Shown one piece after another: positions 22,759 to 57,840 of a stretch of 64,000 bases of DNA. Numbering within the stretch: position 1 is the first letter of the stretch; every line of letters starts with the position of its first letter. Position numbers and translations under genes: made by a program. Location: contig OY751492.1 of NCBI GenBank assembly GCA_963565915.1, positions 2,542,001 to 2,606,000 of the forward strand, read 5' to 3'. A model generated the notes under the pieces. The model searched no databases and was not told where the DNA came from. It saw only the letters and a program-made list of their open reading frames with translations. The DNA comes from Entoloma clypeatum (Eukaryota > Basidiomycota > Agaricomycetes > Agaricales > Entolomataceae).

Positions 22759-23353
22759 TGTTATATCTGTCTCCAAGTCTCCGATCTACTCCGATCATCC
22801 TCCGACATTCCAGACATCTGTTACCTCCTCATCTCTGCACATTGCCATCATGCATTTCATATTCATATTCATGTTTACTTATGCATCGTCTTTTTCACAT
22901 GGTCCATTGACCGACATCTCTGATGTTCAATACAGTTGCTGGCAACTTACGCCACAACTCCGGACCTACTCCGACCATCTCCGTAAAGTAATCACATTTA
23001 GATATTTAAGCTCGTACTATACCTGTAGTTCCTCAGTTCGAATATCAACCAAGTTCACTCCTCTACTCTCCATTCATGCCAGAGATCCTCGCCGTGGTAC
23101 AATACACTGACAACATCCTCATCTTCTGCTCTTCCTCCATCGTTACCCTTCGATGAGCTCAGTACTGTGTCCGAGTCACAACTGCGACGTCGTCTGACCA
23201 CTTCCACGTCAGTGTGTCCCTCAACACATACGTTGAAGCCACGTCCCTCCCCTTCATTGTTCCTCTGCATTTCTGGAGTTCTGCTCTGGTCTCAGTCCTA
23301 TGTCCGACCTCCAACAGACTCCAATGAAGCTCCGACATTTCACCTACTTAACA
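22759..23353 (+). repeat. 5' LTR of Gypsy-A
   Basis: 595 bp from TGTTATATCTGTCTCC to CACCTACTTAACA. It is colinear with 29545-30257, which carries extra sequence. It contains the TATA box and the self-primer sequence. Confidence 0.85.
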
Positions 23354-23393: not shown

Positions 23394-24540
23394 ATGGCAC
23401 TCTGAAACACTAAGACAGCAAAAGCCACAGAAGCTGGCACTTCTAGGCAGCAAGTTCTACAAAATGTTGAACAACATTTAACAGAACTATCCCCTGTAAC
23501 TCCGACCACTCCGACACCTCCGGGTTTTCGGCCCATCACACCTCCGCATAATATTCCGATCCCCACTTCCCCCATAGAATCTGCACCCCCGTCTCCTCAG
23601 AATATTTTTGGCCCACCAGCCCTTGCGGATTTTTGTCTTAATGACCAATGAACTAAAACGCAGCAAAGGTCACAAGCATCACAAAAAGGCTAAGGATCTG
23701 GACACCTTTGATGGTTCCAATCCCCAAAAACTGAACCAGTTCATCCTCCAATGCATATTGTTTTTCCGCGACAATGCCGAGTATGACAATGACTCTGCCA
23801 AAATCACTCTCACCATATCTTTCCTCCGAGGCACAGCTCTCGATTATTTCAAGCATTTCATCATTGAACCGGACCCAGACAACCCCCCAGACTGGTATGA
23901 AGATTGGTCCGCATTCCTCCGCACACTACGCACAGAATTCGGGGTCATTGACCCCATTGCAGATGCTGCTGACTCTCTGGACAATCTCAAAATGCGCAAA
24001 AATCAACACATTCTCAAGTATAATATTGAGTTCACACGCCTTGCTGCCAAAACACACTGGGACAGCTCCACCCTGCATCACTGATACTACTCCGGGTTGG
24101 CGGAGCGGATTAAAGATGTCCTTGGAACTCAAGTAAAGCCAAGCACATTACCAGCACTTAGGAAGCTAGCACAGACTATCAATGCTCGCCACTGGGAACG
24201 TCAGCATGAGAAATCCCGCTCCGACAAGTCCGCATCCAAATCTGACAAATCTGAAGCCAAAACTCCCTCCACAAACTCTGATAAAAGCTCCAAAGCCAGA
24301 CCGCAGACACAGAACCAGGGCAAACAGTCGAAGCCTTCCTCTGCTCCCAAGTCCAACATCTCCGACAAACTCAGAAAACTAACTCCAGAGGAACGCAAAC
24401 GCCGTTTTGACAACAACCTCTGTATGTTTTGTGGCAAAGCTGGACACGTCACGAAAGATTGCCTGAAGTCTTCGTCCTCCGCCTCTAAGGCTAAGGCGCA
24501 CACTGCCCAAGCCAAGATCACAGATGAAACAAAAAATTAG
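23394..24540 (+). pseudogene. Gypsy-A gag with CCHC knuckle, interrupted
   Basis: A proline-rich N-terminus (about 23394-23640) is followed, after a 1-nt frame change near 23640, by a retrotransposon Gag capsid region (TFDGSNPQKLNQFILQCILF near 23705) and a CCHC zinc knuckle, CMFCGKAGHVTKDC (CX2CX4HX4C), at about 24424-24465. The frame ends at TAG 24538-24540. TGA at 24082-24084 splits the frame in both Gypsy-A and Gypsy-B and fits an Arg CGA codon. Gag assembles the particle and binds RNA. Confidence 0.8.
24531..24540 (+). promoter_or_regulatory. -1 ribosomal frameshift heptamer at gag stop
   Basis: A AAA AAT (24531-24537) is in the gag frame as X XXY YYZ and is followed at once by the gag TAG stop. 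Slipping back one base opens the protease frame, which begins KLVGSPQDS. The identical heptamer is kept in Gypsy-B (60306-60312). No pseudoknot was assessed. Confidence 0.7.
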
Positions 24541-25575
24541 TGGGCAGTCCACAGGACTCCATACGGCCTGAGGACTGCGTTGAACCCATCCGTACTACCG
24601 CTCTACTCAACGCTTCCGCTCTTTCCAATCCCAATTCCCTCCGTGTCCAACATACATCTCCACTTATCTCCAATCCTTCTCTGATAGCCGCCCTTGTGGA
24701 CTCCGGCTCTACTCAGTGCTTTATTGACTCCCGTTATGCTTCATCCTATAAACTCCCTTTCACCTCCATACCTCCGATCGAACTTAAATTATTTGACGGA
24801 ACGTCCAACTCCGTCATTACTCAGGCAGTTGATCTCCCTGTATACTTTTCCTCCAGTGAATATATGGCCATTACAGCCTATGTGACTCCGCTCGATTCCT
24901 CCTGTTCTATGGTTCTTGGATACAACTGGCTCACCCGCTACAATCCTATGATTGACTGGGTATTGGGCAGTATTACTTTCCGTCCACAGCTCTTGAAGGA
25001 GTCTCTGACCTTGACATCTTCTGCCAGGTCAGCTCTGCTACCTCCGCAGACCTCTCCCGATACTCCGACCTCCGACTCCAGCACATCCGCTGCAACTCCG
25101 GATGTTGTTCCAAATATTGCATTGATAAATGCAGCCGCATTTGTGTGAGCTTGCAAACTTCCGGGTGCCCAATCTTTCTGAATTCACCTCTCCGACCACA
25201 CGATCTACGCCCAATCCGCTTCCATGTCCAAGGATCCTCTGGACCTCTCCCATATTCCAGAGGAATATCACGATTTTGCCGATGTTTTTAGCAAGACAAA
25301 AGCAGACACCCTCGCTCCGCATCGTCCGTATGACCTCCGCATCGAGTTAGAAGACGGATCGACTCCCCCTATTGGCCCTATGTACTCCATTTCACAATCT
25401 GAACTATCTGCCCTGCAAAACTTCATAGACAAATATTTGGCCATTGGTTTCATTCGCCCCTCTCGCTCTCCGCACGGCACTCCGGTCCTCTTTGTCTGAA
25501 AGAAGGACGGTTCCCTCCACCTGTGCGTCGACTATCGGGGCCTGAACAAAGTTACCAAGAAGGATAGATACCCTC

Positions 25576-25822
25576 TGTTGGATTAGTAATATGCCACAGA
25601 ACTCATATTGGGGTGCATGCCATATTTGCAAGTTGCCTGAATTGGTTAGCTCAGGTTGAGCATTTGTCAGGTTGATACTGCAGTGGTTGTACTATTGTTG
25701 AGTGAGATGGAGTACTATCCAAGTTGAATTCCACAAGACCTGGTGGCTCAGTTGGTTAGAGCACTTGGTATATATCCAGGAGATCCTGGGTTCAAACCCC
25801 AGTCTGGTCACATCTTTTAACA
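25576..25822 (+). mobile_element. 247-bp LTR-like insertion containing a tRNA-like sequence
   Basis: Starts TGTTGGATTAG and ends CATCTTTTAACA (TGTT...AACA). It is flanked by CCCTC on both sides (25571-25575 and 25823-25827). The empty site is visible in Gypsy-B near 53343-53350, where the same codons run on without it. These are LTR-retroelement ends with a 5-bp target duplication. It is too short to code and has no second LTR, so it is a solo LTR or a terminal-repeat element in miniature (TRIM). The tRNA-like part is at 25737-25809. Confidence 0.75.
25737..25809 (+). ncRNA. tRNA-like Pol III promoter sequence
   Basis: 73 nt that can fold as a cloverleaf: a near-complete acceptor stem (GACCTGG with TCTGGTC), a D arm with box A (TGGCTCAGTTGGTTAGAGC), an anticodon stem CTTGG/CCAGG, a CTGGG/CCCAG T stem and a TTCAAAC T loop forming box B. 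The anticodon loop is TATATAT, with A where U33 is nearly invariant, so it is not read as a working tRNA gene. A retroelement-borne Pol III promoter is the better reading. Confidence 0.65.
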
Positions 25823-28504
25823 CCCTCTTCCGCTCATCTCCGACCTCCTTTCCACTGCCGGAAAAGTGTGTGTTTATACCACTCTCAATCTCCGACATGC
25901 ATATCATCTTGTCCGCATTGCCGACGGAGATGAATGGAAAACCGCTTTCCGCACTCGTTACGGATCGTTTGAATGGCTTGTTATGCCTTTTGGACTATCC
26001 AACGCCCCTGCCGCTTTTCAGCGATTTGTGAATGATATCTTTAGTGACCTCCTTGATGTTACAGTGGTGGTCTACCTTGACAACATTCTCATTTACTCCG
26101 ACGACCCCGCCAAGCACCCCAACAATATCAAGGAAGTTCTCCAATGTCTCCGCAAGAACGGACTTTACGTCCGCTCTGACAAGTGCAAATTTTCTGTTGA
26201 CACAGTCGAATATCTTGGTTTCATCCTTTCTCCCTCCGGTCTCTGCATGTCCAAAACCAAGGTGAAGACCATCCAAGAGTGGCCTGAACCTCGAAAAGTG
26301 AAGGATGTACAGTCTTTCCTTGGATTCGCGAATTTCTATCAATGTTTCATTCACAGTTATTTGGACATCATTGTTCTGCTCACCTGACTCACCCAGAAGG
26401 ATACTCCGTTCCGTTTCTCCAACTCCGCACAGAGTGCGTTCAACAAGTTGAAACTCGCTTTTACCAAAGCACTGGTCCTCACTCATTGGATTCCTGATCG
26501 ACCTATTATCATCGAGACGGATGCTTCTGACTATGCACTTGGTGCTATTTTGTCCATCCGGACCTCCAACGAGGAGATACACCCAGTAGTGTTCCACTCC
26601 CGCACCTTCACCGCCCCGGAACTCAACTACGACATGCACAACAAGGAGTTACTTGCTATGAAGCATTCAAGGTATGGCGACATTACCTTGAAGGCTCCGC
26701 TGCTCCGATCGACCTTGTCACGGACCACAAGAACCTGGAGTACTTCGCCACTACAAAGGTTCTCACCCGCTGACAGGCCCGGTGGTCCAAGTTCCTCTCT
26801 CAGTTCAACCTCTTGATTCATTTCCGCCCCGGATGTCTCGGTACCAAGCCGGACTCTTTGACTAGATGATGGGACGTCTATCCCAAAGAGGGGAATAGCG
26901 ACTATGCATCGGTAAATCCAAGCAACTTCTGACTGGTCTTTTCCCAAGAACAGCTGTCTGCATCTCTCCAAGCTACGGAGTTGTTCACCCCCGTTCTCTG
27001 CGCCACAGTCATCATGGACATCGAACAGCTACATTCCGACATCCTCTGTTCACTCCCATCTAACCCAATCTATGCCGACCATCTCAAGGAGCCCAAACCG
27101 CACTGGTCTGTAGACTCCGACGGTTTCCTCCGTCATAGTGGTCGCATTTATGTCCCCGACTCTGATAACCTCCGGCTCCACATCCTCCGCAACAAGCACG
27201 ACCATATTCTCTCTGGACACCCCGGACAGAACAAGACAGTTAGTCTCATTCAACGAGATTATACTTGGCCTGGTGTTCGAGACTTTGTCAAAAAGTACTG
27301 CAAATCCTGCACCACTTGCATGCGCTCTAAACCTCAATGCCACAAGCCCTATGGTATGCTGAAGCAACTCCCAGTTCCGAACCTTCCGTGGAACTCCATA
27401 TCCATGGACTTCATCGGGACACTTCCGACCTCCGGCAGTTTTGACGCAATCCTTGTTATTGTTGACTGAATGACAAAACAAAGCATTTTTGTTCTGACTA
27501 CGATCCACTGCACCTCTGAAGATCTAGCCACCTTGTTCATCCTGCATGTGTTCTCCAAGCACGGAGTACCGGAACATGTCACCTCCGACCGAGGCCCGGA
27601 GTTCGTCTCCCCCTTTTTCCGCTCCCTCAGAAAAGCCCTCAACATGACTCTGCACTTCACCTCTGGCTACCATCCTGAAGGCGACGGTCAAACCAAATGT
27701 ACCAACCAAACCTTGGAACAGTACCTCCGCATTTTCTACAACTATCAAACAGGACAACTGGTCTGAACTACTCCCGCTTGCGGAGTTCGCATACAACAAT
27801 GCTCCGAGTGCTATGACCGGGATCTCGCCCTTCTTCGCCAATAAAGGTTATCATCCAAACCTCTCCATCCATCCGGAGCATGACCTCGCATCCGCCCGTG
27901 CCCGACAATTCATCATAGACCGGATGAGCTTCACCAAGAACTCAAATCTACAATCCTAGAAGCTCAAGGACGTTATCAAGGCCCTGCCGATCTCCGGGGT
28001 GCTCCGCCCCCTCTGCTCAAAGTAGGACAGCAAGCTTTTGTGAAGGCTAAGTTCTTCCGCACTACACGACCCTCCAAAAAGCTGTCTGAAAAGTACCTTG
28101 GCCCCTTTGACATCCTTGCCAGGAATGGTACACACTCTTACACCCTCCGACCTCCAGACACCATATGCGGTGTTCACCCCGTTTTCCACATCTCCATGCT
28201 GGAGCCATCTGTTCCGAACGACATTCCGAACCGGACAGTAACTCCGCCTCCTCCGATCGACGTTGAAGGAGAAGTGGAATATGAAATCGCCGAAATCCTT
28301 GACACCAAACTGGATCGTCGGTGTTCTTGCAAACTGCTCTACCTAGTCCATTGGCTAGGCTATGAAGGAACCGATGAGGAACAGTCCTGGCTACCTGCCA
28401 CGGAACTCGAACACATGATGGACTGAGTCGCGGATTTCCACTCCGCGTATCCAGAGAAACCGGGCCCCATATCACGCCTATAGAACTGCGCAAGACACTC
28501 ATAT

Positions 28505-28555: not shown

Positions 28556-29518
28556 CTACTGGGTTTTGGCCTTTTTGGCCGGCGGACCGTCATCCTCCGA
28601 CTCTTCCTCCGGTTCTCCCTCCGCCTCCTCTTTCTCCGCTTGCAGTTCTGCAAGCTCCCCATCCGCCAACCCCTCGTCCTTCCCCTCGTCCTTTTCCTCG
28701 TCCTCTTCCTCTCCTTCTTCCTCTTCTCCGTCCTCCGTCTCCGACTCCGGAGCCACTGCCTCCAGAAGGAAATTCTGGTAGGCGAGGTGGTTGTTCATAA
28801 TTTGTAGCTGCCGGAGCAGCGCCCAACCAACCCTCACCGACTGCTCCTCCCTCTCTTCCAGAGCCTCCCGGAGCCCCCGGAGCTCCTCCGCGACCCCTGC
28901 GCCGCAGCAGTTTTTTGCCCCGCTCGGGCCCGCGAACTCCGCAACGGCTTCCTCCGTCCTTCCCCGCTTCCGCTTCACCTGCGTCTCGCCGGCCCTCAGG
29001 CATACCTGTTTGCCATCCTTGCACTGCTGGCATGCAGTGCCTTTTCCCTGCCTAAGGAGATTGTCAGTAAGAAAAGAAAATGGAGAAGTGGGTACTCACA
29101 ACGCCCACTTGCATTCCACCTTCGCCTGCGCACAGGCCTGACACGCCTCCCCCCGGACCTCCGACTCCTCCGCTCTGCTCTCCGCCCTCTGTTTCCCCGC
29201 CTTCTTCGCCCTCTTCTTCTCCACCTCCGCCTCTGCCTTTGCCTCTGCCTCTGCCCTCTTCTTTGCCTCTGCCTCCCTCGCCCTCCTCTCAGCCTCCACC
29301 TTCTTCCTTGCCTCCACCTCCTCCTTCTCCTTGTGTACCTGTGCCAGATGGTGCAGGAGCTCCTCTTCGGAGTCGTTGAGGTTGGCGCTGGAGCACGTGG
29401 GTTGTGTGTTTGAGTCTTGGGGCATGTTGGTGGTAACTGGAAGAAAACCCTTGGGCCGCTCATCTCCGTTAAATAACCGAGACCACATGACCTTGTTTAT
29501 TTTCTCGCAGTCTTCCAT
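28556..29518 (-). CDS. Antisense Zn2Cys6-spaced protein in Gypsy-A, one intron
   Basis: Predicted 304 aa on the strand opposite gag/pol, between pol and the 3' LTR. ATG at 29518; exon 1 29518-29100; intron 29099-29052 (48 nt, GTGAGT donor, CTGAC branch site, CTTAG acceptor); exon 2 29051-28556. The join keeps the frame. Residues about 60-120 form a charged Glu/Lys/Ala coiled coil. Cysteines 126, 129, 136, 147, 150 and 157 give CX2CX6CX10CX2CX6C, the spacing of fungal Zn(II)2Cys6 DNA-binding clusters, with the intron between the two halves. The usual basic residues between Cys2 and Cys3 are scarce (AQAKVE). Then follow a basic KRKRGR, a leucine-rich helix, a long acidic tail and PPAKKAKTQ, an NLS-like end. 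It has no stops, unlike the gag/pol around it. A nuclear regulator or chromatin-linked role is inference. The promoter would lie in or near the 3' LTR. Confidence 0.7.
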
Positions 29519-29531: not shown

Positions 29532-29541
29532 AAGAGGGGAA
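29532..29541 (+). promoter_or_regulatory. Polypurine tract of Gypsy-A
   Basis: AAGAGGGGAA three bases before the 3' LTR; the expected plus-strand primer site. Confidence 0.65.
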
Positions 29542-29544
29542 TAC

Positions 29545-30257
29545 TGTTATATCTGTCTCCAAATCTCCGATCCACTCCGATCTTCCTCCGACATTCCAGA
29601 CATCCGTTACCTCCACATCTCCGCACATTGCCATCGTGCATTTCATATTCATAACTCCATGCCTTTATGCATTTCATATTCATATTCCCGTTTACTTATG
29701 CATCGCCTTTTCCACATGGTCCGTTGGCCGACATCTCCGATGTTCGTTACAGTTGCTGGCAACTTACGCCACAAATCCGGACCTACTCCGACCATCTCCG
29801 TAAAGTAATCTCATTTAGGTATTTAAGCTCGTACCATACCTGTAGTTCCTCAGTTCAAATATCAACAAAGTTCACTCCTCTACTCCCTGTTCATGCCAGA
29901 GATCCTCGCTGTGGTACAATACGCCGACGACATCCTCATCTACTGCTCTTCCTCCATCGTTACCCTTCGACGAGCTCAGTACTGTGTCCGAGTCACAACT
30001 CCAACGTCGTCTGACCATTTCCATGTCAACATGTCTCTCACCGAGATCTTTCCGAGGACCTCTGCACCTCCAACCTCTCCTCCGACCTCCTGAAATTGGG
30101 ACACCTTATCCAACAAACGGCGGCGCAACACATACGTTGAAGCCATGTCCCTCTCCTTCATCGTTCCTCCGCATTTCTGGAGTTCCGCTCCGGTCTCAGT
30201 CCTACATCCGACCTCCGAAGGACTCCGACGAAGCTCCGATGTTTCACCTACTTAACA
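29545..30257 (+). repeat. 3' LTR of Gypsy-A
   Basis: 713 bp from TGTTATATCTGTCTCC to CACCTACTTAACA. It is longer than the 5' LTR because of a duplicated CATTTCATATTCAT segment and about 90 bp extra near 30035-30125. The TATA and primer sites are conserved, with a perfect 11-nt match to the PBS. Confidence 0.85.
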
Positions 30258-33756: not shown

Positions 33757-35796
33757 CAGGTAGTCAACCTACACTGTATTGTAATTTACGGTCCAGCGAA
33801 GGCATACAGTGTATGGTAAATTATGGAAGCAGCGAATTCGCTACAACACCAGCAAATTTACCACGGCAAACGGCGAAATAATAATGTCACCGGCGAAGAA
33901 GAAATGTCGCCGGCGACAACATCCAACAGATCGGCAAATAATTCACCGGCAAAAGACACCACAGCAAAAAACCGGCGAAGGACCAGCGACAAACCGGCGA
34001 CACAGCGACAGGCCATCAGCGAATTGATGACCCATCAGCGAAAGTGAGCCTTGAGTGCCGGCAACACTGCAAATGAAAAGAATGATGCTAACGACAGAGC
34101 AGCGAATAATTCACCAGCGAGCGACACCACAGCAAAAAACCGGCAAAAGACCAGCCACAAATCGGCGACAGGCCATCGGCGAATGAATGGGCCACCAGCG
34201 AAACCAAGTATTGAGGGCCGGCGACACTGCAAATTAAAAGAATGATGCTAACAACAGATTGGCATATCATTCACCAGCGAAAGATGCTACAGCGAAAAAC
34301 TGGCCAAAGACCAGCGACAAACCAGCGACACAGCGACAGGCCATCGGCGAGTTGATGACCCATCGGCAAAAGCGAGCCTTGAGTGTCGTATAGGGTGTAT
34401 CAGATGTACATCTACTTGATACAAAAAGTTCCAAGAGAATCCATGCCATGTGGAAGACTGGAGATAAGACTTTGTCCAAAATATGTCTCAGAATCCCACG
34501 TGCATAACAATGACAGTGTTGGGAACGAAATCATGTTTTCTACATTTCCCACTTGATGGGCCACAAATATGCTTGTTAACTAATGGATAGATGCCTATGC
34601 ATGAGTCCTATTGCTTCAAACTATTATTAAATTATGAGGAAGGCACCGTGCATGCCTGCGCGATGTCTTTGGTGCATTGTTTACTATTATTTGGTTCAGA
34701 CCATGGGACCTCTATAACTTGGAATCCGTGGCGAAATTTGATAAAATAAATACATACTTGATGATACAACATGCTCCCCTACTCATCTGATATAGTAGCA
34801 AACATTGCTTGTTCCTGTGTAGATATAATGAGGAGATGTGCAATATCTTTCGACATTTGTTTACATGTATTTGACATGTTTGATGGGTGTGTGTTGCACA
34901 TCATCCAACATTCACCGGTTTTTCGCCGGTTTTGTGCCATGGTGTCTGTCACCGGTGAATTATTTGCTGATCTGTCGTTAGCATCGTTCTTTGTATATGG
35001 AGTGTGGCCGACACTCAAGGCTGGCTTTCGCCGATGGGTCATCAATTCGCCGATGGTCTGGTGCTGTGTTGCCGGTCTTTCGCCGATTTTTGGCTGTGGT
35101 GTCTTTCACTGGTGAATTATTCGCTGATCTGTCGTTAGCATTGTTCTTTGTATATGGAGTGTTGCTGACACTCAAGGCTCGCTTTTGCCGATGGGTCATC
35201 AATTCGCCGATGGTCTGTCGCTGTGTCGCTGGTTTGTCGCTGGTCTTTGGCCAGTTTTTCGCTGTAGCATCTTTCGCTGGTGAATGATATGCCAATCTGT
35301 TGTTAGCATCATTCTTTTAATTTGCAGTGTCGCCGGCCCTCAATACTTGGTTTCGCTGGTGGCCCATTCATTCGCTGATGGCCTGTCGCCGATTTGTGGC
35401 CGGTCTTTTGCCAGTTTTTTGCTGTGGTGTCTCTCACTGGTGAATTATTCGCTGCTCTGTCGTTAGCATCGTTCTTTTCATTTGCAGTGTTGCTGGCACT
35501 CAAGGCTCGCTTTTGCCGATGGGTCATCAATTCGCTGATGGCCTGTCGCTGTGTCGCCGGTTTGTCGCTGGTCCTTCACTGGTTTTTTGCCATGGTGTCT
35601 TTTGCCGGTGAATTATTTGCCGATCTGTTGGATGTTGTCGCTGGCGACATTTTTTCTTTGCCGGTGACATTATTATTTCACCGTTCGCCATGGTAAATTT
35701 GCTGGTGCTGTAGCAAATTCGCTGCTTCCATAATTTACCATACACTGTATGTCTTCGCTGGACCATAAATTACAATACAATGTAGGTTGAGTATGT
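33757..35796. mobile_element. Fold-back element with tandem-repeat arms, 8-bp TSD
   Basis: 2,040 bp flanked by GCAAAACA on both sides (33749-33756 and 35797-35804). The ends are inverted copies, CAGGTAGTCAACCTACACTG and CACATACTCAACCTACATTG. The arms (about 33757-34390 and 34913-35796) are long inverted repeats built of units near 160 bp (landmark AATGATGCTAAC at 34080 and 34241; its complement at 34978, 35136, 35303 and 35463). The units are full of CCGGCGAA-like motifs. The centre (34390-34910) carries part of the repeat seen at 6545-7030. It does not code. The 8-bp duplication fits the hAT superfamily. Confidence 0.75.
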
Positions 35797-44629: not shown

Positions 44630-45116
44630 CTGGACCATTGCTAGTTTACTGAAAAAAAAAAAAAAAACCCCCCAAGGGGGTGGCAGGATTAAGCTGAGAG
44701 ACCACCGTCACTACCAATTCCTGAGGACGTGCATCAGACGCCAAGACCACGCTCGGGCCAAAAGAATGAAACCGTCCCACCTCAAGGGCGGCACATGGCT
44801 TAAGGATGTGGGTCACTTCCAATCCCTCATGGCTCAAATGGTTCGCGGCCTCACCAGTCATGCCCCAATTGGCCACTATAGACATAGGTTCAATATTGGC
44901 GACAAGGTTGAACAATGTGACTGTGGATCAGGGTCCATCGAGGACTTCGCCCATGTACTCTACAAATGTCTGCACCACCCCACCAGGCCCCCAGACATGC
45001 CCACCTTCTCAAGGAACACTCCCACATGGGACAACTTCGGGAAATTCATTATGGATAACCCAGGGGCCTTTGCCTTCCGGGATCGTCCAACGCCCAACAC
45101 AACCATTGGCGGTAGT
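44630..45116 (+). pseudogene. LINE (Tad-like) C-terminal fragment
   Basis: Plus-strand frame with LRDHRHYQFLRTCIRRQDHA, GHYRHRFNIGDKVEQCDCGS and DFAHVLYKCLHHP. The late Cys/His cluster (CDCGS ... HVLYKC) is the type seen after RT/RNase H in fungal non-LTR retrotransposons. It begins after an A16-C6 run near 44651-44672 and is cut by the Gypsy-D LTR at 45117. Confidence 0.65.
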
Positions 45117-45550
45117 TGTAAGGGCAACCACTTTCACTTTTCACTTTTCCTTCACTTTCTTCCTTTCCTTTCTATTCCACCATCTCCGACGTCCTCCGAT
45201 CGTATCCGCTGTCTCCGACATCTTATCTGCCTCTCTGCATCCGACGACTCCGCCCCCATCCGCTACTCCGCACATCGGATCGCAGGTACTATCATTCATC
45301 TTGTTTCCATTCATCCTTCATTGCTACTCCCGATCATTGCTCATCATTCATGCGTCTCGTTTTATCTCTTATTTCATATCTCATTTTACTATTTATCGCA
45401 GCCAGCTTGCAGGGGAATCTTTAGAACTTTCTCTTCGGATCTCCCTTGCAAGGTATGTGTTGTATTACTTATTAGACTGCTCAATCTAAACTTTGGATCT
45501 CCCTTGCAAGTATCTGAGTTTGAGTCTTGGATCGTAAGGTCGCCCTTACA
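45117..45550 (+). repeat. 5' LTR of Gypsy-D
   Basis: TGTAAGGGC ... GCCCTTACA, 434 bp; 8-bp or longer inverted ends. Confidence 0.9.
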
Positions 45551-45562
45551 GTAGAAAGTTCT
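45390..45562 (+). promoter_or_regulatory. Gypsy-D TATA-like box, self-primer and PBS
   Basis: TATTTATC near 45390 precedes AGAACTTTCT (45423-45432) by about 30 nt. The PBS AGAAAGTTCT (45553-45562) begins 2 nt after the LTR and is its exact 10-nt complement. Same geometry as the other gypsy families here. Confidence 0.7.
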
Positions 45563-45711
45563 CTTTTAATTGGACCGGGTCCGATTGCATCGTTGTCACG
45601 ATTCTGCGCTTCGGAGCAGCTTCATCCGCGTCCGACTCCGATACATCTCACACCCCTTCCAGTTCTTCTAACTACCTCTCCGTAACTGGTGATTCTGCTC
45701 CACGCATAGTA

Positions 45712-46857
45712 ATGGACGACCCCAATCGCCTTGAACAGCTCGAGCACGAGTTCCAGGAACAACATCAAACTCTCGCTGATATCTCGACTCAACTTGACCA
45801 ACTCCTCCTCGCCTTCAATGCAATTCCTGCCCCAGCTCCGCCACCTATCCCCGCACCTGCTATTATACCCGCTCCGCTCGCTCCGGCCAATCCGGGCGTG
45901 CGTCGAGCAAAACCTGCCAATCCGTCGGACTTCGATGGATCGCGCGCAAATGGCTGGACCTTTCTAAATTCCTGTGAATTGTTTATGGGGCTGGCTCCGG
46001 AACAGTTCGCAGACGACCATGCTAAAATTTATTGGGCTTTATCTTTCATGAAGAGTGGACGTGCAGCACGCTTTGCGGATCACATTATCCGACAGGAGCG
46101 GAGGACCGGTGCTCCACCTTATCGGACTTGGGTGGACTTCCGCGCAGTCTTTACAGCGGAGTTCACTCCGAAGAATGAGGAACAGGACGCGAGACTGATC
46201 CTCGAAGGAGAATCCTATTATCAAGGTCAACGGGATGTTGAGACCTATATTGATGAGTTCAAAGACTACATTGACAAAGCGGGCTATCAGGAGGATACCA
46301 ACATCGTACTCAAATTCCGCCATGGTCTCCGTTCCGACATTCAGAACGAGATTGCCACCCTGACCCACGGACGACCTGCGGATGACAACCCCGATGAGTG
46401 GTACTCTGCAGCACAAGTCAATGATGACAATAGGATTGCCAACAAAGCCTTCAAAGCCACTGCTCCGACCCGTACCTCCGCCTTCCGCAATGTTGTCAGA
46501 CCAAGAGTACCTGGCACCTCAGTATTCCCTCACCCCTACATTCCATTCACTCCGCGCACAGCTCCGCTCGCATCCGCATCCGCTCCGCTGACAAGGGACC
46601 CCAATGCAATGGACATTGATACTTCACGCGTCAAAGGCAAGAATGCCAATGCATGCTTCAGATGTAACAAAACGGGTCACTTTAGTCGTGAATGCCCCCT
46701 TCGCTTCGATGTTTGCTTCATGACAACGGAGGAGCAGGACGAGTTTGTTATGGAACAACTCGTGGTCAAGGACGCAGCGGAAGGCAACTCCGTTCCACCC
46801 ACGGAGTCTGCGGAGTCGGAGGGAGGACAGGAGGATTTTCCTCCCCACAGCGAGTGA
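45712..46857 (+). CDS. Gypsy-D gag, apparently intact
   Basis: 381 aa from ATG 45712 with no internal stop. Residues 1-60 are a coiled-coil-like, proline-rich leader. The retrotransposon Gag capsid region (SDFDGSRANGWTFLNSCELF, later YHQ-like SYYQGQRDVETYIDEFKDYI) spans about 65-230. A single CCHC knuckle, CFRCNKTGHFSREC, is near residues 315-330. It forms the particle and binds element RNA. Pol overlaps its end in the -1 frame by at least 165 nt; no classical slippery heptamer was found in the last codons. It is the only gag in the window without a stop. Confidence 0.85.
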   Translation: MDDPNRLEQLEHEFQEQHQTLADISTQLDQLLLAFNAIPAPAPPPIPAPAIIPAPLAPANPGVRRAKPANPSDFDGSRANGWTFLNSCELFMGLAPEQFADDHAKIYWALSFMKSGRAARFADHIIRQERRTGAPPYRTWVDFRAVFTAEFTPKNEEQDARLILEGESYYQGQRDVETYIDEFKDYIDKAGYQEDTNIVLKFRHGLRSDIQNEIATLTHGRPADDNPDEWYSAAQVNDDNRIANKAFKATAPTRTSAFRNVVRPRVPGTSVFPHPYIPFTPRTAPLASASAPLTRDPNAMDIDTSRVKGKNANACFRCNKTGHFSRECPLRFDVCFMTTEEQDEFVMEQLVVKDAAEGNSVPPTESAESEGGQEDFPPHSE

Positions 46858-49800
46858 ACAGTGCGCCCTCGTTGTCTGCTAAAAATCGTTATGCTGCCTT
46901 ATTTATGGAACAATATGATCCTATACCCTCCATCTCTAAGCCTGCAAATGATCCCATAGTCGCACCCAACTCCACAAATCCCATCTGCCTTCGCCTCTCT
47001 AAATGGGAGCGTCGGCTTCCAAAACAATATGTCCTCGCCTCCGCTCACTCCAACAATTCTATTGAACTAGACATAGTTCTTGAAACTACCGACACCAAAG
47101 ACACACTATCACAAAAGGCCTTACTCAACAGCGGGGCAACAGGGTCGTTTATTGAACACACTCTGGTCGAGAAACATCGACTCTCTACTTGAAAACTACA
47201 ATGCACAATTCCGGTATACAACATCGACAGAACTCCAAACGAGGCCGGAGCAATAATGGAGGTGTTGGATGTAGTGCTCCGCTACCGGGATCACTCGGAA
47301 CGGACCCAGCTTGCAGTCACAAGTTTGGGAAAACAAGAAATCGTGTTAGGCTTCACTTGGCTCAAGGAACACAACCCCGAGGTAGATTGGACATCAGGGG
47401 AAGTGAAGATGAGCCGGTGTCCTGCACAATGTCAGACATGCCACCAGGAGGCAGCCCAAGAGCGGAAGGAGCGGAAGTTTGAACAAGTCCGCATCCGAGC
47501 CTGTCGGATGGGTTCCACTCCGACGTCCGGTCTAGAGGAGGAGGCTCCACATGGCCCATGGGTGGAGGATGTCACAGAAGGAGAGGAAGCGGAGGAGTTA
47601 GCGGATAACGATGAGGAAGAGGATGAGTTTGAGGAGGGAGACCGCCTTTTTGTCGGAACAGTACCCGCGGAGGCGGAGTTCATCTGTGCTTCATCCAATA
47701 TCTCGCAACGTCTATCGGAGGCCTTCCTCAGTAACCAAAAACCTAAATCTTTCTGCGACTCTGTACCAGACCACTTGTTTGACTTCGAAGACGTATTCTC
47801 AAAGACCTCTTTTGACACCTTACCGGAAGAGCGGACTTGGGACCATGCCATTGAACTTGTTCTGGACGCCTCTCCGGCGGGGTGTAAGGTATATCCGCTT
47901 GCTCCAAACAAACAGAAGGAACTCGACGCGTTTTTGGAGGAAAACCTTGCAACTGGTCGGATCTGCCCTTCCAAGTCTCCGATGGCATCTCCGGTATTCT
48001 ACATCAAGAAGAAGGATGGCTTGCTTCATCTTGTACAAGACTACCGGTCACTCAATTCCAAAACTATCAAAAACAAGTTTCCACTTCCGCTCATATCTGA
48101 ACTGATCAATAAACTTCAATGTGCTCAATACTTCACCAAGCTCGACATCCGCTGGGGCTACAACAATGTGCGGATAAAACCCAGAGACGAATGGAAGGCT
48201 GCTTTTCGGACCAATTGCGGACTCTATGAACCATTGGTGATGTTCTTCGGCCTCACTAATAGTCCATCCACATTCCAGACTATGATGAACGAGATCTTTC
48301 AGGACCTTATCACTGAAGGTGTAGTCTGTGTTTACCTCGACGACATACTCATCTTCACGGAGACCCTTGCGGAGCATCAAAGAGTCACACGGATTGTACT
48401 GGAACGACTTCGCGAACACAAACTCTATCTAAAACCAGAGAAATGCAAGTTTGAACAAACATGCATTGAATACCTAGGCCTTATTATTGAACAAGGACAC
48501 GTAGAGATGGATCCGGTGAAGGTAGCGGGGGTCGCGGAGTGGCCTGCTCCGACAAACGTCCGAGAAGTACAGTCCTTTCTGGGATTCACTAACTTCTATC
48601 GCCGTTTTATTGAAGGGTTTTCGGACATCGCGCGCCCTCTTTTCGAGCTCACGAAGAAAGGGCACCTCTGGTCTTGGAGGGAGGGAGAAGTGTCCGCATT
48701 TGCGGAGTTGAAGCGGAGGATTACATCCGCTCCGATCCTGGTCTTAGCTGATCATGGAAAGAAGTGGCGGATAGAAGCGGATAGCTCGGACTTTGCAACC
48801 GGAGCAGTACTGTCCCAACCAACAGAGGACGGTAAGTGGCACCCTGTCGCATTCTATTCCAAAAGCCTTAGTCTGGTGGAACGCAACTACGAGATCTATG
48901 ACAAGGAGATGTTGGCAGTGGTCCGCGCATTGGAGGAATGGAGGCACTTCCTTGAAGGAGCGGAGAAGACAGTGGAGATTTGGACGGACCACAAAAATCT
49001 TGAGTACTTCATGACAGCTCAAAAACTAAATCGACGACAGGCTAGATGGCCCTTATACCTCGCTCGTTTCGATTTCAAAATGCACCATCGACCTGGCAAG
49101 TCAATGGGCAAGTCTGACGCTTTGTCCCGACGAGCGGACCACGGAGACAGATCGCGGGACAACGAAAACATCATCCTTCTGCGACCAGAATTGTTTGCAG
49201 TGTGAGCAATGCGGGGGGTAACTGTTCAAGGGTAAGAACGCGACGTCCTCCGCCAGGTCCGACAGGGAATCCGAGAGGGGTTACTGGAAGATAGTGTGGC
49301 GGAGGTTGTCAAATCCCTTCCGTCCGTCGGAGCAGGGTCCATCCGTAGTGCAGAGTGGAGGCAAGCGGAAGGTTTGCTCTACTTCAGGGATCGTATCTAT
49401 GTTCCTAACAATCCCCAACTGCGTCATTGGATCCTCACACAACACCATGACACTCCAGTGGCCGGACATCCTGGACGGTGGAAAACCTTGGAACTGGTGT
49501 CGCGCAATTACTGGTGGCCGCACATGTCCCGTTTAATAGGTCAATATTGCAAGACATGCGACCCTTGCCTCCGCACCAAGGTCTGACGCACTCCGCCCTC
49601 TGGAGAGCTCAATCCGCTACCGGTCCCCACGGAGCGATGGCAAGTAACCAGTGTTGACTTCATTACTGAACTACCAGAAGCCCATGGCTACGATGCTATC
49701 ATGGTCGTAGTGGACTCAGTAGGGAAGCGGGGACACTTCATCCCGATGCACTCCGACATCTCCGCACTTGGGACTGCACGCTCCTATGTTCAAAATGTCT

Positions 49801-50759
49801 GGAAACTCCATGGACTACCGGAGGCCATTGTCTCCGACCGAGGACCACAGTTTGTCGCCAAGTTCATGCGCGAACTATACAGGCTGCTTAACATTAAGGT
49901 TGCTGCCTCAACAGCCTACCATCCGCAGTCGGACGGACAGACGGAGCGGGTCAATCAAGGATTAGAACAATACCTTCGCCTATTCGTCAATGAACGTCAA
50001 GATGATTGGGACGAATGGCTTCTGATGGCTGAATTTGCATACAACAACCATGTTCACGCATCGACACATCAAACTCCATTCTACATTGACACCGGCTGCC
50101 ATCCGCGCATGGGATTTGAACCTCGCGAGAAGCGGACGGAGATCGAGGCGGTAGCGGATTTCAGCCAGCGGATGAAGTCTGCTCTAGAGGAGGCTCGCGC
50201 AGCACTGACAAAGGCAAAAGATGACATGGCACGATACTACAACCAGCATCGGAGCACCACTCCGACATTCCGCCTGGGGGACAAGGTCTTTTTAGACTCA
50301 TCAGACCTCAAAACCACCCGACCCACAAAAAAGCTTGCACATCGATACGTAGGCCCTTTCCCAGTGGTCCGACCTGTCGGAACACATGCCTATGAACTTC
50401 GCCTTCCCCCTTCCATGTCCCGTGTTCACCCAGTATTCCATGTCGTCAAACTTTCACTAGTTCCCGACGACCCTTTCCGACGCCAAGTCCGCTCTCCTCC
50501 GCCTCCGACGGTAGTCGGAGAAGAATTAGAGTACGATGTTGAAAACCTCTTGGACAGCCGACTGCATTGAGGCAAGCTTCAATTCTTGGTCAAATGGAAG
50601 GGATATGGCTATGAAGAGAATTCCTGGGAAGCAGAAGACAATGTGCACGCTCCACGCCTAGTCCGCGACTTCTACCAATGTCATCCGGGAGCTCCGCGGC
50701 GGATCGCCGCCGCAATATTCGACTCGTTTCGCCTGACACGTCGAGACGCCGTGCCTTGA
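46692..50759 (+). pseudogene. Gypsy-D pol: PR-RT-RNaseH-IN-chromodomain, five stops
   Basis: One frame, no frameshift. Protease (LLNSGATGSFIEH at 47124), RT (KLDIRWGYNNVRIK, VYLDDILIFTE near 48330), RNase H ([23 protein letters not shown]), integrase zinc region (HHDTPVAGHPG ... CKTCDPC near 49445-49570), core ([17 protein letters not shown]) and chromodomain (FLVKWKGYGYEENSWEAED near 50585). Stops at 47190, 49203, 49233, 49584 and 50568; four are TGA and the last two clearly replace Arg CGA. The protease reads NSG instead of DSG (AAC 47127-47129), a loss of the catalytic Asp. RT and RNase H catalytic residues are intact. Confidence 0.9.
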
Positions 50760-50770
50760 AGGGGGGGTGA

Positions 50771-51204
50771 TGTAAGGGCAACCACTTTCACTTTTCACTT
50801 TTCCTTCACTTTCTTCCTTTCCTTTCTATTCCACCATCTCCGACGTCCTCCGATCGTATCCGCTGTCTCCGACATCTTATCTGCCTCTCCGCATCCGACG
50901 ACTCCGCCCCCATCCGCTACTCCGCACATCGGATCGCAGGTACTATCATTCATCTTGTTTCCATTCATCCTTCATCACTACTCCCGATCATTGCTCATCA
51001 TTCATGCGTCTCGTTTTATCTCTTATTTCATATCTCATTTTACTATTTATCGCAGCTAGCTTGCAGGGGAATCCTTAGAACTTTCTCTTTGGATCTCCCT
51101 TGCAAGGTATGTGTTGTATTACTTATTAGACTGCTCAATCTAAACTTTGGATCTCCCTTGCAAGTATCTGAGTTTGAGTCTTGGATCGTAAGGTCGCCCT
51201 TACA
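50771..51204 (+). repeat. 3' LTR of Gypsy-D
   Basis: 434 bp, about 98.6% like the 5' LTR by eye; the differences are mostly C/T and G/A. Confidence 0.9.
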
Positions 51205-53379
51205 GCTTCTAGGATTGTAGATTTGAGCTCTTGGTGAAGCTCATCCAGGTCTACGACAAATTGTCGGGCATGGGCGGATGTGAGGTGGCGCTCCGGATGG
51301 ATGGAGAGGTTCAGATGATAACCTTTATTGGCAAAGAAGAGCGAGATCCCGGTCGTAGCACTCAGAGCATTGTTGTATGCGAACTCCACAAGCGGGAGTA
51401 GTTCAGACCAGTTGTCCTGTTTGATAGTTGTAGAAAATGCGGAGGTACTGTTCCAAGGTTTGTGTTGGTACGTTCAGTTTGACCGTCGCCTTCAGGATGA
51501 TAGCCAGAGGTGAAGTGCAGAGTCATGTTGAGGGCTTTTCCGAGGAAGCGGAAAAAGCGGGAGATGAACTCCGGGCCTTGGTCGGAGGTGACATGTTCTG
51601 GTACTCTGTGCTTGGAGAACACATGCAAGATAAACAAGGTGGCTAGATCTTCGGAGGTGCAGTGGATTGTAGTCAGAACAAAAATGCTTTGTTTTGTCAT
51701 TCGGTCAACAATAACAAGGATTGCGTCAAAACCCCCGGAGGTCGGAAGTGTCTCAATGAAGTCCATGGATATGGAGTTCAACGGAAGGTTCGGAACTAGG
51801 AGTTGCTTGAGCATACCATAAGGCTTGTGGCGTTGAAGTTTAGAGTGCATGCAAGTGGTGCAGGATTTGCAGTACTTTTTGACAAAGTCTCGAACACCAG
51901 GCCAAGTATAATCTCGTTGAATGAGACTAACTGTCTTGTTCTGTCCGGGGTGTCCAGAGAGAATATGGTCGTGCTTGTTGCGGAGGATGTGGAGCCGGAG
52001 GTTATCAGAGTCGGGGACATAAATGCGACCACTATGACGGAGGAAACCGTCGGAGTCTACAGACCAGTGCGGTTTGGGCTCCTTGAGATGGTCGGCATAG
52101 ATTGGGTTAGATGGGAGTGAACAGAGGATGTCGGAATGTAGCTGTTCGATGTCCATGATGACTGTGGCGCAGAGAACGGGGGTGAACAACTCCGTAGCTT
52201 GGAGAGATGCAGACAGCTGTTCTTGGGAAAAGACCAGTCAGAAGTTGCTTGGATTTACCGATGCATAGTCGCTATTCCCCTCTTTGGGATAGACGTCCCA
52301 TCATCTAGTCAAAGAGTCCGGCTTGGTACCGAGACATCCGGGGCGGAAATGAATCAAGAGGTTGAACTGAGAGAGGAACTTGGACCACCGGGCCTGTCAG
52401 CGGGTGAGAACCTTTGTAGTGGCGAAGTACTCCAGGTTCTTGTGGTCCGTGACAAGGTCGATCGGAGCAGCGGAGCCTTCAAGGTAATGTCGCCATACCT
52501 TGAATGCTTCATAGCAAGTAACTCCTTGTTGTGCATGTCGTAGTTGAGTTCCGGGGCGGTGAAGGTGCGGGAGTGGAACACTACTGGGTGTATCTCCTCG
52601 TTGGAGGTCTGGATGGACAAAATAGCACCAAGTGCATAGTCAGAGGCATCCGTCTCGATGATAATAGGTCGATCAGGAATCCAATGAGTGAGGACCGGTG
52701 CTTTGGTAAAAGCGAGTTTCAACTCGTTGAACGCACTCCGTGCGGAGTCGGAGAAATGGAACGGAGTATCCTTCTGGGTGAGTCAGGTGAGCAGAACAAT
52801 AATGTCCGAATAACTGTGAATGAAACATTGATAGAAATTCGCAAATCCAAGAAAAGACTGTACATCCTTCACTTTTCGAGGTTCAGGCCACTCTTGGATG
52901 GTCTTCACCTTGGTTTCGGACATGCGGAGACCGGAGGGAGAAAGGATGAAACCCAGATATTCGACTGTGTCAACAGAAAATTTGCACTTGTCGGAGCGGA
53001 CGTAAAGTCCGTTCTTGCGGAGACATTGGAGAACTTCCTTGATATTGTCGGGGTGCTTGGCGGGGTCGTTGGAGTAAATGAGAATGTTGTCAAGGTAGAC
53101 CACCACTGTAACATCAAGGAGGTCACTAAAGATATCATTCACAAATCGCTGAAAAGCGGCAGGGGCATTGGATAGTCCAAAAGGCATAACAAGCCATTCA
53201 AACGATCCGTAACGAGTGCAGAAAGCGGTTTTCCATTCATCTCCGTTGGCAATGTGGACAAGATGATATGCATGCCGGAGATTGAGAGTGGTATAAACAC
53301 GTGCTTTTCCGGCAGTGGAAAGGAGGTCGGAGATGAGCGGAAGAGGGTAGTGATCCTTCTTGGTAACTTTGTTCAGGCC
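51205..53379 (-). pseudogene. Gypsy-B pol, 3' portion (RT to integrase)
   Basis: Minus strand: RT (YLDN at about 53086-53097, [16 protein letters not shown]), RNase H ([13 protein letters not shown]), integrase zinc region and core to about residue NNALSATTGIS, then [14 protein letters not shown], where it is cut by Gypsy-D at 51204. It shares with Gypsy-A the YLDN change and the TGA after IIVLLT (about 52785), but keeps CGA (Arg) where Gypsy-A has TGA after ILVIVD. The chromodomain and 3' LTR are gone. It is interrupted at 53379 by Gypsy-C. Confidence 0.85.
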
Positions 53380-53703
53380 TGTTGAGGCGACGCTAAGTCA
53401 AACAATGTCACGAGCCCAAACTTAGGAACTTAGAATGAGGAACGTGGAAAGATGAGGAAGGGGCTGTATTGCCAAGAGACCCAGCGGGAATCTCAAGAGA
53501 ACAAGCTATCAAATACAAGTGAAAGTACCCTACTTATATATGTAAATATCATGAGGCTGTATTGAGGCAGCCTCATGCTGCGCGACTCCAGATCCTTCGC
53601 ATCCTGCTGTGTGATAATGATAAGATGTCCTCATGTACAACATGATATAGATAAGATAGAGATAAGATAAGTTAAAGTGAAAAGTGAAAATATGATCATA
53701 ACA
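53380..53703 (-). repeat. 3' LTR of Gypsy-C
   Basis: 324 bp, colinear with 59150-59477. On the minus strand it is preceded by the purine tract AGAAAGGGGGTAA (about 53704-53717). Confidence 0.9.
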
Positions 53704-53714
53704 TTACCCCCTTT

Positions 53715-56700: not shown

Positions 56701-57840
56701 GTTAATATGTCGGTAATCCTGTACCATTTGTTTCCTTCCATCTTTTTTGGGTATAAAGAATACTGGCAAAGTTTGTGGTGACTTGGTATGTCGAATATAT
56801 CCTTTGCATAATTGATCGTCCACAAATTCAGATACTTCTTTCCTTTCATCTGGTGACAGGGGGTAGACTTTGGCCTTCTTTGGTACAAAATCCGGCTTTA
56901 AGTCTATAGTGTGATCCCATGGTTTCCTGACTGGTAACCTTTCCGACGCTTTCTTTTCGAAGACTGATAGATACTTGTGATATTTCTGGGGAACTACCTG
57001 TTCCGCCAGCGTTTCGTCTGAGGTTTCCCCTTTAGCTGCCCTGAGCATGTGAATTATCTCTTCCTCCACTTCTTCTTCATTTCCTTCTACTACTTCTTCA
57101 ATTCTTCCACCCCATCTGGTTCTTGCTGTTTTATTTGCATGCCACATTCTTCTGGACATCTTGATAGTTTAATTTCCGCTTTTTCCCAATCGATCTCTGG
57201 ATTATGGTGTTTCAGCCAAGTGTGTCCAACAATAATTTTAGCTTTTCTTAGGTTGCATGCTTCAAACACTGCTATTTCCACATGTCCTTTATACCGCATG
57301 ACCATGACTGCCTCATGCGTGATCGAACCTCCTTGGTTAAGTGTGCCATCAATGTTGTAGACCCGGATGGGGAAGGGTAGTTCCCTTAATTTAATATTGT
57401 TTCTTTTGGTGAAGTCCAGATCAATGAACATCCCTGTCGCCCCCAAGTCCAATAATGCATCAACATCAAAGGTGCATTTGTCCTGCAATGTTTCCAGCAT
57501 GATTTTTATCATAAGCTCTTTTTCCAAAGAAGCGGATCGAATAAAAGATGGTTCCCCCATAGAGTCCGTTTGCCTAGTTAAATTATCTGATTTTTCACAA
57601 CAGGGAATTAAGCATTCGTTTGTAAGGGCCAAACCAAGCCTCGTTTCCGAGGACTCCCCAATGATATAATTTACAAGCATATCTAAGTCCAAATCATCTG
57701 TGCTATTTTTTTGAATTTGTACCTTTTTGGGTTTGTCCAATAGTATTTTATTGTATGTAACTGCTGCATCTGTAAATTTCTGAAACCATGATTTTACAGT
57801 GTCTTTATGTATATAAGAGTCTATAGGCAATTGTTCATAA
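53715..57840 (-). pseudogene. Gypsy-C pol, RT active site deleted
   Basis: Protease at 57830-57090 with LLDLGATG where DSGATG is expected (Ser to Leu). The RT N-terminal part runs 57159 to about 56530 (KMDLRWGYNNVRIKEGDEWK). After GAFEP the sequence jumps to [13 protein letters not shown], so the region holding YxDD, about 100 residues, is missing. RNase H is at 56350-55811 (ESDASDFAMGAIL; TNYKNLEYF where TDHKNLEYF is usual). Integrase zinc region 55217-54939 (HHDNPVAGHPGQ, CDKCQ), core 54929-54063 (SDRGPQFAA), chromodomain 54029-53715 (EHLVQWEGLTPDHNMWEP). Several frameshifts and stops. It cannot reverse transcribe by itself. Confidence 0.85.
55294..55790. mobile_element. hAT-type MITE family 1 in Gypsy-C (497 bp)
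   Basis: TAGTGTTTGAAAGTCCAGTC at the left and CTGGACTTCAAAACACTA at the right. Flanks TGTGTTCC (55286-55293) and TGTGTCCC (55791-55798) form an 8-bp duplication with one change. Interior rich in GACTGGT and GGTTCGAACTGG. Confidence 0.85.

What the first reader, a model, noticed from the sequence alone, without database searches (positions are those of the whole stretch)
28556..29518. Intact, spliced Zn2Cys6-spaced gene on the antisense strand of a dead gypsy element
Seen: 304 codons in two exons joined by a 48-nt intron with GTGAGT donor, CTGAC branch site and TTAG acceptor. The splice joins the halves of CX2CX6CX10CX2CX6C. Coiled-coil, acidic and NLS-like segments flank it. Known: this cysteine spacing is that of fungal Zn(II)2Cys6 regulators. 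Inference: Gypsy-A carries an accessory antisense gene, perhaps a regulator of the element or of host chromatin, transcribed from the 3' LTR side. It stays open while gag and pol hold many CpG-derived stops, and an intron on this strand would be spliced only from antisense RNA. I know of no well-characterised fungal equivalent.
Basis: partly seen in the sequence, partly recalled or inferred. Interest (0 to 1): 0.92.

Follow-up and report, generated by a model that had tools for sequence, protein, structure and literature searches.

The report
Spliced antisense gene in fungal retrotransposons
A group of jumping genes in this probably fungal genome carries a real, spliced gene written backwards at one end, perhaps for a nuclear DNA-binding protein that regulates the element; such backwards genes are known from some retroviruses and plant elements but hardly studied in fungi.

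Summary
The 304-codon, two-exon antisense frame runs from 29518 to 28556 with a 48-nt intron. In 64 aligned copies the donor is intact in 63, the acceptor in 64, and 383 of 384 cluster cysteines are kept. dN/dS is 0.27-0.29 in the spliced frame, 0.93-1.30 in shifted frames; gag and pol give 0.34 and 0.40. Of 115 listed pol copies of this family, 109 carry the gene. Of 35 sister pol copies (70-76% identical), 33 carry a gene with no listed sequence match but the same plan: helix, CX2CX6C, phase-2 intron, CX2CX6C, basic, acidic, nuclear-signal-like tail.

Corrections: the open frame of this dead copy is weak evidence (no CGA codons, so no CpG route to stops). Pfam does not accept the domain as Zn2Cys6; its halves may be in swapped order. 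A fungal antisense accessory gene (Boty brtn) is already in print.

Best reading: a nuclear regulator of the element, expressed from the 3' LTR and working like HBZ; TCCGA arrays in the LTRs could be its target. Expression, DNA binding and function are untested.

The parts
29100..29518 (-). Exon 1 of the antisense gene: N-terminus, Ala/Glu/Lys/Arg-rich probable helix, first CX2CX6C
   Evidence: frame kept across copies
29052..29099 (-). 48-nt phase-2 intron, GTGAGT donor, CTGAC branch-like site, CCTTAG acceptor
   Evidence: donor 63/64, acceptor 64/64
28556..29051 (-). Exon 2: second CX2CX6C, basic stretch, Leu-rich helix, acidic region, PPAKKAKTQ tail, stop
29000..29143 (-). Cysteine cluster codons 126-157, split by the intron
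   Evidence: 383/384 cysteines kept in 64 copies
29423..29425 (-). Alternative start codon (MPQDSNTQ), kept in 64/64 copies
29532..29544 (+). Polypurine tract AAGAGGGGAATAC next to the 3' LTR
   Evidence: sequence; same motif in L044, similar in L086-L088
29545..30257 (+). 3' LTR (end approximate); presumed source of antisense transcription; 12 TCCGA, 0 TCGGA
22759..23353 (+). 5' LTR (approximate; shortened), 86-89% identical to the 3' LTR
23578..24540 (+). gag remnant (Ty3_capsid / DUF4939 matches in its first piece), frame broken
24540..28426 (+). pol remnant: protease, RT, integrase H2C2, SH3_Tf2-1, chromodomain-like end; 6 in-frame stops in the 882 codons compared
29566..29591 (+). TCCGA direct repeats at the start of the 3' LTR
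30207..30239 (+). TCCGA direct repeats near the end of the 3' LTR

Best explanation
A clade of chromodomain-type Ty3/gypsy elements in this genome carries, between pol and the polypurine tract, a convergent antisense gene of about 270-320 codons in two exons. SHOWN by sequence: position, strand, conserved splice sites, selection on the spliced frame, persistence across sister lineages. INFERRED: an antisense RNA starts in the 3' LTR, is spliced by the host (the intron survives because only sense RNA is reverse transcribed) and gives a nuclear protein. Its helix would dimerise, its six-cysteine binuclear zinc cluster would bind CGG-type sites, and its acidic tail would recruit host factors. Most likely target: the element's own LTRs, which hold direct repeats of TCCGA (TCGGA on the gene's strand). 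The protein would then tune LTR transcription or mark LTR chromatin, a feedback regulator working like HBZ of HTLV-1.
For: Copies: at least 40 DNA matches, 166 exon-2-centred protein matches. Splice sites kept in 63-64 of 64; intron present in 14 of the 15 loci L029-L043 (L029 is in both sets). dN/dS 0.27-0.29 in the spliced frame, 0.93-1.30 in shifted frames; lowest of six frames on 250 sampled pairs (0.31 against 0.60-1.24); pN/pS of pol 0.40, gag 0.34. Non-CpG differences private to one copy fall on codon positions 37/40/34, those shared by four or more 12/18/39; Fisher p = 1.2e-4, true frame only: selection acted in the replicating lineage, decay after insertion is neutral. 109/115 listed pol copies have the gene 257-494 nt downstream; 33/35 sister pol copies have the sister gene. 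Lineages share the plan, 303-317 aa, phase-2 intron between the CX2CX6C halves. Zinc halves match Zn_clus better when swapped: 21.5, 20.6, 17.3, 17.8 bits against 15.6, 13.1, 9.0, 9.4 native, and at most 15.9 in 10 cysteine-fixed shuffles. TCCGA triples at 2-7 nt spacing: 3-7 in each LTR of L044, L086, L087 against 0-1 in the internal stretches of the same loci and 0.00 in shuffled LTRs; 3407 in the genome against 8 for the control.
Against: No transcript, protein or binding data. All four native domains tested stay below Pfam's cut-off; of four swapped constructs one passes it, by 0.5 bit. PDB matches are all insignificant, and native L086 also aligns to GAL4 in native order. Single TCCGA motifs are enriched inside the elements too (gag-pol of L044 48 against 9.8 in shuffles, L086 internal 20 against 4.5), and weakly in an LTR without the gene (4 in 444 nt against 0.7); codon use or a host factor may explain part of it. 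15 of 25 copies of the second subgroup have lost the N-terminal frame from the ATG at 29518. Some diverged loci have lost part of the cluster (L034, L035, L041). No homologue elsewhere was found, though the protein collection may hold few fungi.
Confidence: 0.5

Rival explanations
1. A functional nuclear accessory protein, but not an LTR-binding regulator: it helps the preintegration complex enter the nucleus or choose heterochromatic sites, or chaperones nucleic acid; the TCCGA arrays are read by a host factor.
For: Coding selection fits any protein function. NLS-like tails in all lineages read. The element has a chromodomain-like integrase end. TCCGA enrichment also in an LTR without the gene and inside the elements. 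Nuclear localisation of plant Grande GENE23 is reported in PMC7264820.
Against: Antisense placement separates its expression from gag-pol, unusual for a particle component; CGG-type arrays beside a zinc-cluster-like gene in each lineage read fit direct binding.
Confidence: 0.34
2. A captured host zinc-cluster gene, passively carried without use to the element.
For: The host genome has 18 ordinary Zn_clus matches.
Against: Selection as strong as on gag and pol; gene kept while its sequence diverged beyond detection between lineages; by eye none of the 18 host matches coincides with a listed locus of the gene family.
Confidence: 0.05
3. No protein: a fortuitous mirror frame in a GC-rich, purine-rich region, or a non-coding antisense RNA.
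For: Low complexity and scarcity of CGA codons keep several frames open here.
Against: Codon-position signal only in the spliced frame; intron lengths vary out of phase while exon 1 keeps phase in 59/64; cysteines kept across lineages.
Confidence: 0.03
4. Antisense RNA itself is the active product (dsRNA silencing trigger or self-limitation), the protein being secondary.
For: PMC7264820 raises this for plant elements.
Against: Does not explain protein-level selection or conserved splice sites.
Confidence: 0.07

Closest known systems
brtn, antisense gene of Boty-like elements, Botrytis cinerea (Ascomycota)
   Same: Additional antisense gene in a fungal element; a Boty-like gag-pol is described with RT, IN and CHROMO domains (title of Zhao 2011 and passages)
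   Different: Zhao 2011 itself not seen; whether brtn is spliced or has a zinc cluster could not be checked
Plant antisense aORFs: Grande gene23, RIRE2, Retand TRP28
   Different: No TRP28 match here; here a split six-cysteine cluster with an intron
HBZ / APH proteins of HTLVs
   Same: Spliced antisense transcripts from the 3' LTR; HBZ, a nuclear protein, lowers LTR expression (PMC10186651 passages)
   Different: HBZ is bZIP; no bZIP match here; no sequence relation known; transposon, not virus
Fungal Zn2Cys6 transcription factors (Pfam Zn_clus PF00172)
   Same: CX2CX6CX(8-11)CX2CX6C; where partial matches occur, the second half resembles the profile's first half or the first half its second
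   Different: Below Pfam cut-off; halves perhaps in swapped order; cluster in mid-protein; no other regulator domain found
'Additional ORF of unknown function' in Tcn1-like chromodomain gypsies
   Same: Extra ORF in chromodomain gypsy elements (figure legend of PMC2864245, passage)
   Different: Orientation and sequence not seen; 'antisense' does not occur in that text

Membership tests
Antisense accessory ORF of LTR retrotransposons (aORF-3R) | Lies between pol and 3' LTR, antisense to gag-pol | tested here: met
   window anatomy; 109/115 and 33/35 listed pol copies
Antisense accessory ORF of LTR retrotransposons (aORF-3R) | Kept in most copies with conservation like gag/pol | tested here: met
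   dN/dS 0.27-0.29; pN/pS pol 0.40, gag 0.34
Antisense accessory ORF of LTR retrotransposons (aORF-3R) | Transcribed antisense, own promoter | not testable with these tools
   no RNA data
Canonical fungal Zn2Cys6 (PF00172) | CX2CX6CX5-12CX2CX6-8C spacing (spacing recalled) | tested here: met
   L086, L087 and L088 too
Canonical fungal Zn2Cys6 (PF00172) | Profile score over curated cut-off in native order | tested here: not met
   9.0-15.6 bits against 21 where reported; not listed for the full-length window and L086 proteins
Canonical fungal Zn2Cys6 (PF00172) | Binds zinc and CGG-type DNA | not testable with these tools
   needs protein
Circularly permuted zinc cluster (hypothesis) | Swapped halves score as a whole domain | tested here: inconclusive
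   gain of 5.9-8.4 bits in four constructs, one over cut-off; 10 shuffles at most 15.9; PDB matches insignificant
Retand TRP28 (PF04195) | TRP28 profile match | tested here: not met
   absent from Pfam scans
HBZ | bZIP domain | tested here: not met
   no bZIP in Pfam scans
Boty brtn | Sequence homology to BRTN | not tested
   no brtn sequence at hand
Ty3/gypsy chromovirus | RT, integrase, chromodomain in gypsy pol | tested here: met
   RVT_1, Integrase_H2C2, SH3_Tf2-1 over cut-off; Chromo 22.1 bits, under its cut-off of 25.1

The most novel reading that the evidence does not exclude
These gypsy elements encode a new class of retroelement regulator: a spliced antisense protein with a circularly permuted binuclear zinc cluster (second half first, intron between the halves) that has co-evolved with TCGGA arrays in the element's own LTRs as a self-encoded transcription switch, an HBZ-like circuit that arose independently in fungal transposons and spread through the genome with them.
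Probability: 0.22. Interest if true: 0.88.

Novelty: new variant of a known kind. Interest (0 to 1): 0.72.

Why it matters
Antisense accessory genes of LTR elements have been noted in plants and in Boty, and the review seen here says their function is not known (PMC7264820). Here is one with a DNA-binding-like domain, an intron that fixes its strand, a candidate target array in the LTR, 142 pol-linked copies and several hundred exon matches, recent insertions among them: a tractable system to ask whether transposons carry their own transcription factors. It also shows how a retroelement can hold an intron indefinitely by placing it antisense to its genomic RNA. If the swapped cluster is real, it is a new arrangement of a very common fungal DNA-binding domain (commonness recalled).

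Tried and rejected
Intron as a CpG-decay artefact (GCGAGT to GTGAGT): my first suspicion when other copies showed long minus-strand frames; rejected because 21 of 21 copies have GTGAGT and 17 introns are 49 nt.

Mirror-strand artefact: rejected by the six-frame test.

The first frame check of the 64 copies used the wrong codon phase (frame part void); redone. The first pol control kept only 2 copies through a filter error; redone with 21 (20 in the statistics). My notebook entry '0/21 unspliced open' is wrong: L020 is open.

Protein collection: three searches without hits; the first scored only the 7998 candidates sharing most words, probably coiled-coil proteins.

TCCGA as proof of self-targeting: weakened because single motifs are enriched inside the elements too and weakly in an LTR without the gene; only the arrays are mostly LTR-bound.

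Literature: (listings) showed no spliced antisense zinc-cluster gene in basidiomycete gypsies; the word 'antisense' does not occur in PMC3248453, PMC3411680 or PMC2864245. The library lacks most subscription journals. Species not identified; one hydrophobin match, none in 14 control genomes, fits a fungus.

Full report
What is in the window. The finding lies in a decayed Ty3/gypsy element with LTRs at about 22759-23353 and 29545-30257 (86-89% identical). Between them are broken gag and pol pieces with capsid, protease, RT, integrase H2C2, SH3 and chromodomain-like matches. The polypurine tract AAGAGGGGAATAC (29532-29544) sits just upstream of its ATG, so the gene fills nearly all the space between pol and the 3' LTR, convergent with pol.

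Is it a gene. The genome (60 Mb, 20 contigs) holds at least 40 DNA matches (40 of 152 candidates scored) and 166 protein matches to a query centred on exon 2. I fetched 20 regions of about 8 kb and mostly shorter ones. In 21 copies donor and acceptor are intact in 21; the intron is 49 nt in 17, 46 in 3, 48 only in the window, so in most copies an unspliced frame cannot be read; the spliced frame is open in 13. In 64 copies (39 close to the window, 25 of a second, partly younger subgroup; the 14 loci L030-L043 of the 78 aligned were left out) donor GTGAGT 63, acceptor 64. The spliced frame is open in 44, and in 4 more as far as my own cut; unspliced in 3; cysteines 383 of 384. Of the loci L029-L043, 14 of 15 have the intron (44-52 nt); in L039 exon 1 is replaced by other DNA, L041 has lost the first cysteine triplet, and L034 and L035 have each lost a cysteine. 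No copy was seen in which the intron had been cleanly removed, as expected if only the sense RNA is reverse transcribed.

Selection. Pairwise NG86 dN/dS over 47 non-redundant of the 64 copies is 0.27-0.29 in the spliced frame and 0.93-1.30 in the shifted frames. Of six frames the gene's is lowest (0.31; others 0.60-1.24; 250 sampled pairs). Pol gives pN/pS 0.40 (20 copies) and gag 0.34 (14 copies), all from the 21 above. An internal control separates history from decay: differences found in one copy only (mostly after insertion) spread over codon positions 37/40/34, differences shared by four or more copies (inherited from the replicating lineage) 12/18/39; syn/nonsyn Fisher p = 1.2e-4 for non-CpG sites; CpG sites (p = 0.36) and the other frames (p 0.07-0.74) show no such excess. 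L087 against L088, a sister pair, gives 0.31.

A correction. In-frame stops are 41 in 15239 pol codons (21 copies), 5 in 5312 gag codons (14 copies), 2 in 5679 codons of this gene (21 copies, from codon 32). But the window's frame has 0 CGA codons (0 in 32, 1 in 28, 2 in 4 of the 64 copies) against 18 of 886 in pol of L017 and 3 of 399 in gag of L012, and 5 of the window's 6 pol stops stand where L017 has CGA. CpG decay cannot easily stop this gene, so openness of one dead copy says little; the comparison of copies says it.

Distribution. Of 150 listed pol C-terminal matches (150 of 2019 candidates scored), 115 are at least 83% identical and 35 are 70-76%. 109 of the 115 have the gene antisense 257-494 nt downstream; none of the 35 has one of the 150 listed matches to it. 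Reading three of those sisters showed the same thing in sequence unrecognisable by that search: MSA..., a charged helix, CX2CX6C, a phase-2 GTAAGT intron of 49-50 nt, CX2CX6C, basic, Leu-rich, acidic, and a tail SNKKQRTK, SNKKQRR or SNKKQRK like the window's PPAKKAKTQ; 303, 316 and 317 aa. With exon 2 of L086 and L087 as queries (152 and 153 matches, fragments included; nine L086-type matches are 100% identical) 33 of the 35 have one. So 142 of 150 listed pol copies carry an antisense cysteine-cluster gene. Two other gypsy elements in the window have too little room for one (about 190 and 360 nt between the last listed pol frame and the LTR; elements 45108-51205 and 53379-59477), so it looks like a trait of this clade. 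L044 is young (LTRs 99.4% identical, CATTC target duplication by eye), and several loci have an open 1246-codon pol frame: intact copies exist.

The domain. Pfam does not list Zn_clus for the full window or L086 protein. Short native domains match it only in pieces, and in reversed order: L086's first triplet to profile 19-35, L029's first to 19-31, L087's and the window's second triplet to 2-15 and 1-13. With the halves swapped the match runs from profile position 1-2 to 30-34 of 39 and rises to 21.5 (over the cut-off of 21), 20.6, 17.3 and 17.8 bits from 15.6, 13.1, 9.0 and 9.4 (L087, L086, window, L029); 10 cysteine-fixed shuffles reach at most 15.9, 8 of them without any Zn_clus match; GAL4 falls from 49.4 to 41.9, in two pieces, when swapped. 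Against: PDB matches are insignificant, and native L086 also aligns to GAL4 in native order (12.6 bits, against 14.1 to LEU3 when swapped). I regard a permuted zinc cluster as suggested, not shown.

A possible target. LTRs of L044 hold 15-16 TCCGA in 726 nt, the first 484 nt of L086's LTR 21 and the first 540 nt of L087's 13 (ends of these two not fixed), against 1.6-2.3 in dinucleotide shuffles (for 726 nt); the reverse TCGGA 0-2. Within clusters units are mostly 7-13 nt apart. The single motif is not special to LTRs: L044's gag-pol holds 48 (shuffles 9.8, half or more in one codon phase), L086's internal stretch 20 (4.5), L087's 8 (3.0). What is mostly LTR-bound are arrays: triples at 2-7 nt spacing number 3 and 4 in the two L044 LTRs, 7 in L086's and 3 in L087's, against 0, 0, 1 and 0 in the internal stretches. 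LTRs of the lineages align only in part. The triple pattern occurs 3407 times in the genome against 8 for the backward control, and 65 of the first 100 listed have another 5.0-8.5 kb away, as LTR pairs would. An LTR without the gene has 4 single motifs in 444 nt (shuffles 0.7), another none. CGG half-sites are the usual target of Zn2Cys6 proteins (recalled).

How it probably works. Shown: an antisense coding gene with conserved splice sites, under selection, kept by a gypsy clade. Inferred: 3'-LTR transcription (the ATG is about 27 nt from the LTR), splicing, nuclear protein, dimerisation, binding to LTR arrays, feedback on element transcription. The nearest working model is HBZ of HTLV-1, an antisense product with a spliced form that lowers LTR activity (PMC10186651, passages); plant aORFs (PMC7264820, parts 1 and 2 of 3; PMC11963269, passages) and Boty brtn (title and mentions only) are the nearest kin in anatomy; a figure legend in PMC2864245 mentions an additional ORF of unknown function in Tcn1-like chromodomain gypsies (passage). 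It is a member of the antisense-accessory-ORF kind, works perhaps like HBZ, and is not a canonical Zn2Cys6 protein by Pfam's test.

Limits. One genome of unknown species; no RNA; start codon uncertain between 29518 and 29425; copy lists are lower bounds. On checking I found that I had misread the shuffle figure for gag-pol (a count, not a rate): the single motif is enriched there too. I therefore lowered the best explanation from 0.55 to 0.50 and the novel case from 0.25 to 0.22, and raised the first rival from 0.30 to 0.34.

Noticed in passing
window 51204-61761, minus strand: A second, truncated copy of the same gypsy family (96.7-98.6% to the first over pol/gag pieces) without the antisense-gene end; it is split by another gypsy element with LTRs at 53379-53703 and 59149-59477.
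   Followed up: partly
window 45108-51205: Another gypsy element, LTRs 98% identical, open gag (381 aa) and pol pieces (649, 289 aa), no room for an antisense gene; its LTR has a weaker TCCGA enrichment.
   Followed up: partly
window 25577-25821: A 245-nt insertion in pol, ending in a tRNA-Ile(TAT)-like sequence (25737-25811) whose letters are in none of the 20 other fetched copies (several of those are truncated); 41 matches genome-wide, many 98-99% identical: looks like a young tRNA-derived SINE.
   Followed up: partly
genome G000: Triple TCCGA direct repeats occur 3407 times against 8 for a reversed control; repeats of the TCCGATGCTGC type suggest further LTR families with them.
   Followed up: partly
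L044 and L045: L044, the youngest copy read in full, has its pol in two frames, and L045 is a truncated or nested element, but exon 2 of the antisense gene is open in both: possibly non-autonomous copies mobilised in trans (spliced frames).
   Followed up: no
window 33761-35793: A 627-nt inverted repeat, 96% complementary, with internal repeats of about 160 nt.
   Followed up: no
L025 and L028 (contig C8, about 17 kb apart): Two nearly identical copies in opposite orientation, probably an inverted segmental duplication.
   Followed up: no
L088 downstream flank: By eye, the DNA beyond the antisense gene's LTR start resembles the LTR of the window element at 45108-45551.
   Followed up: no
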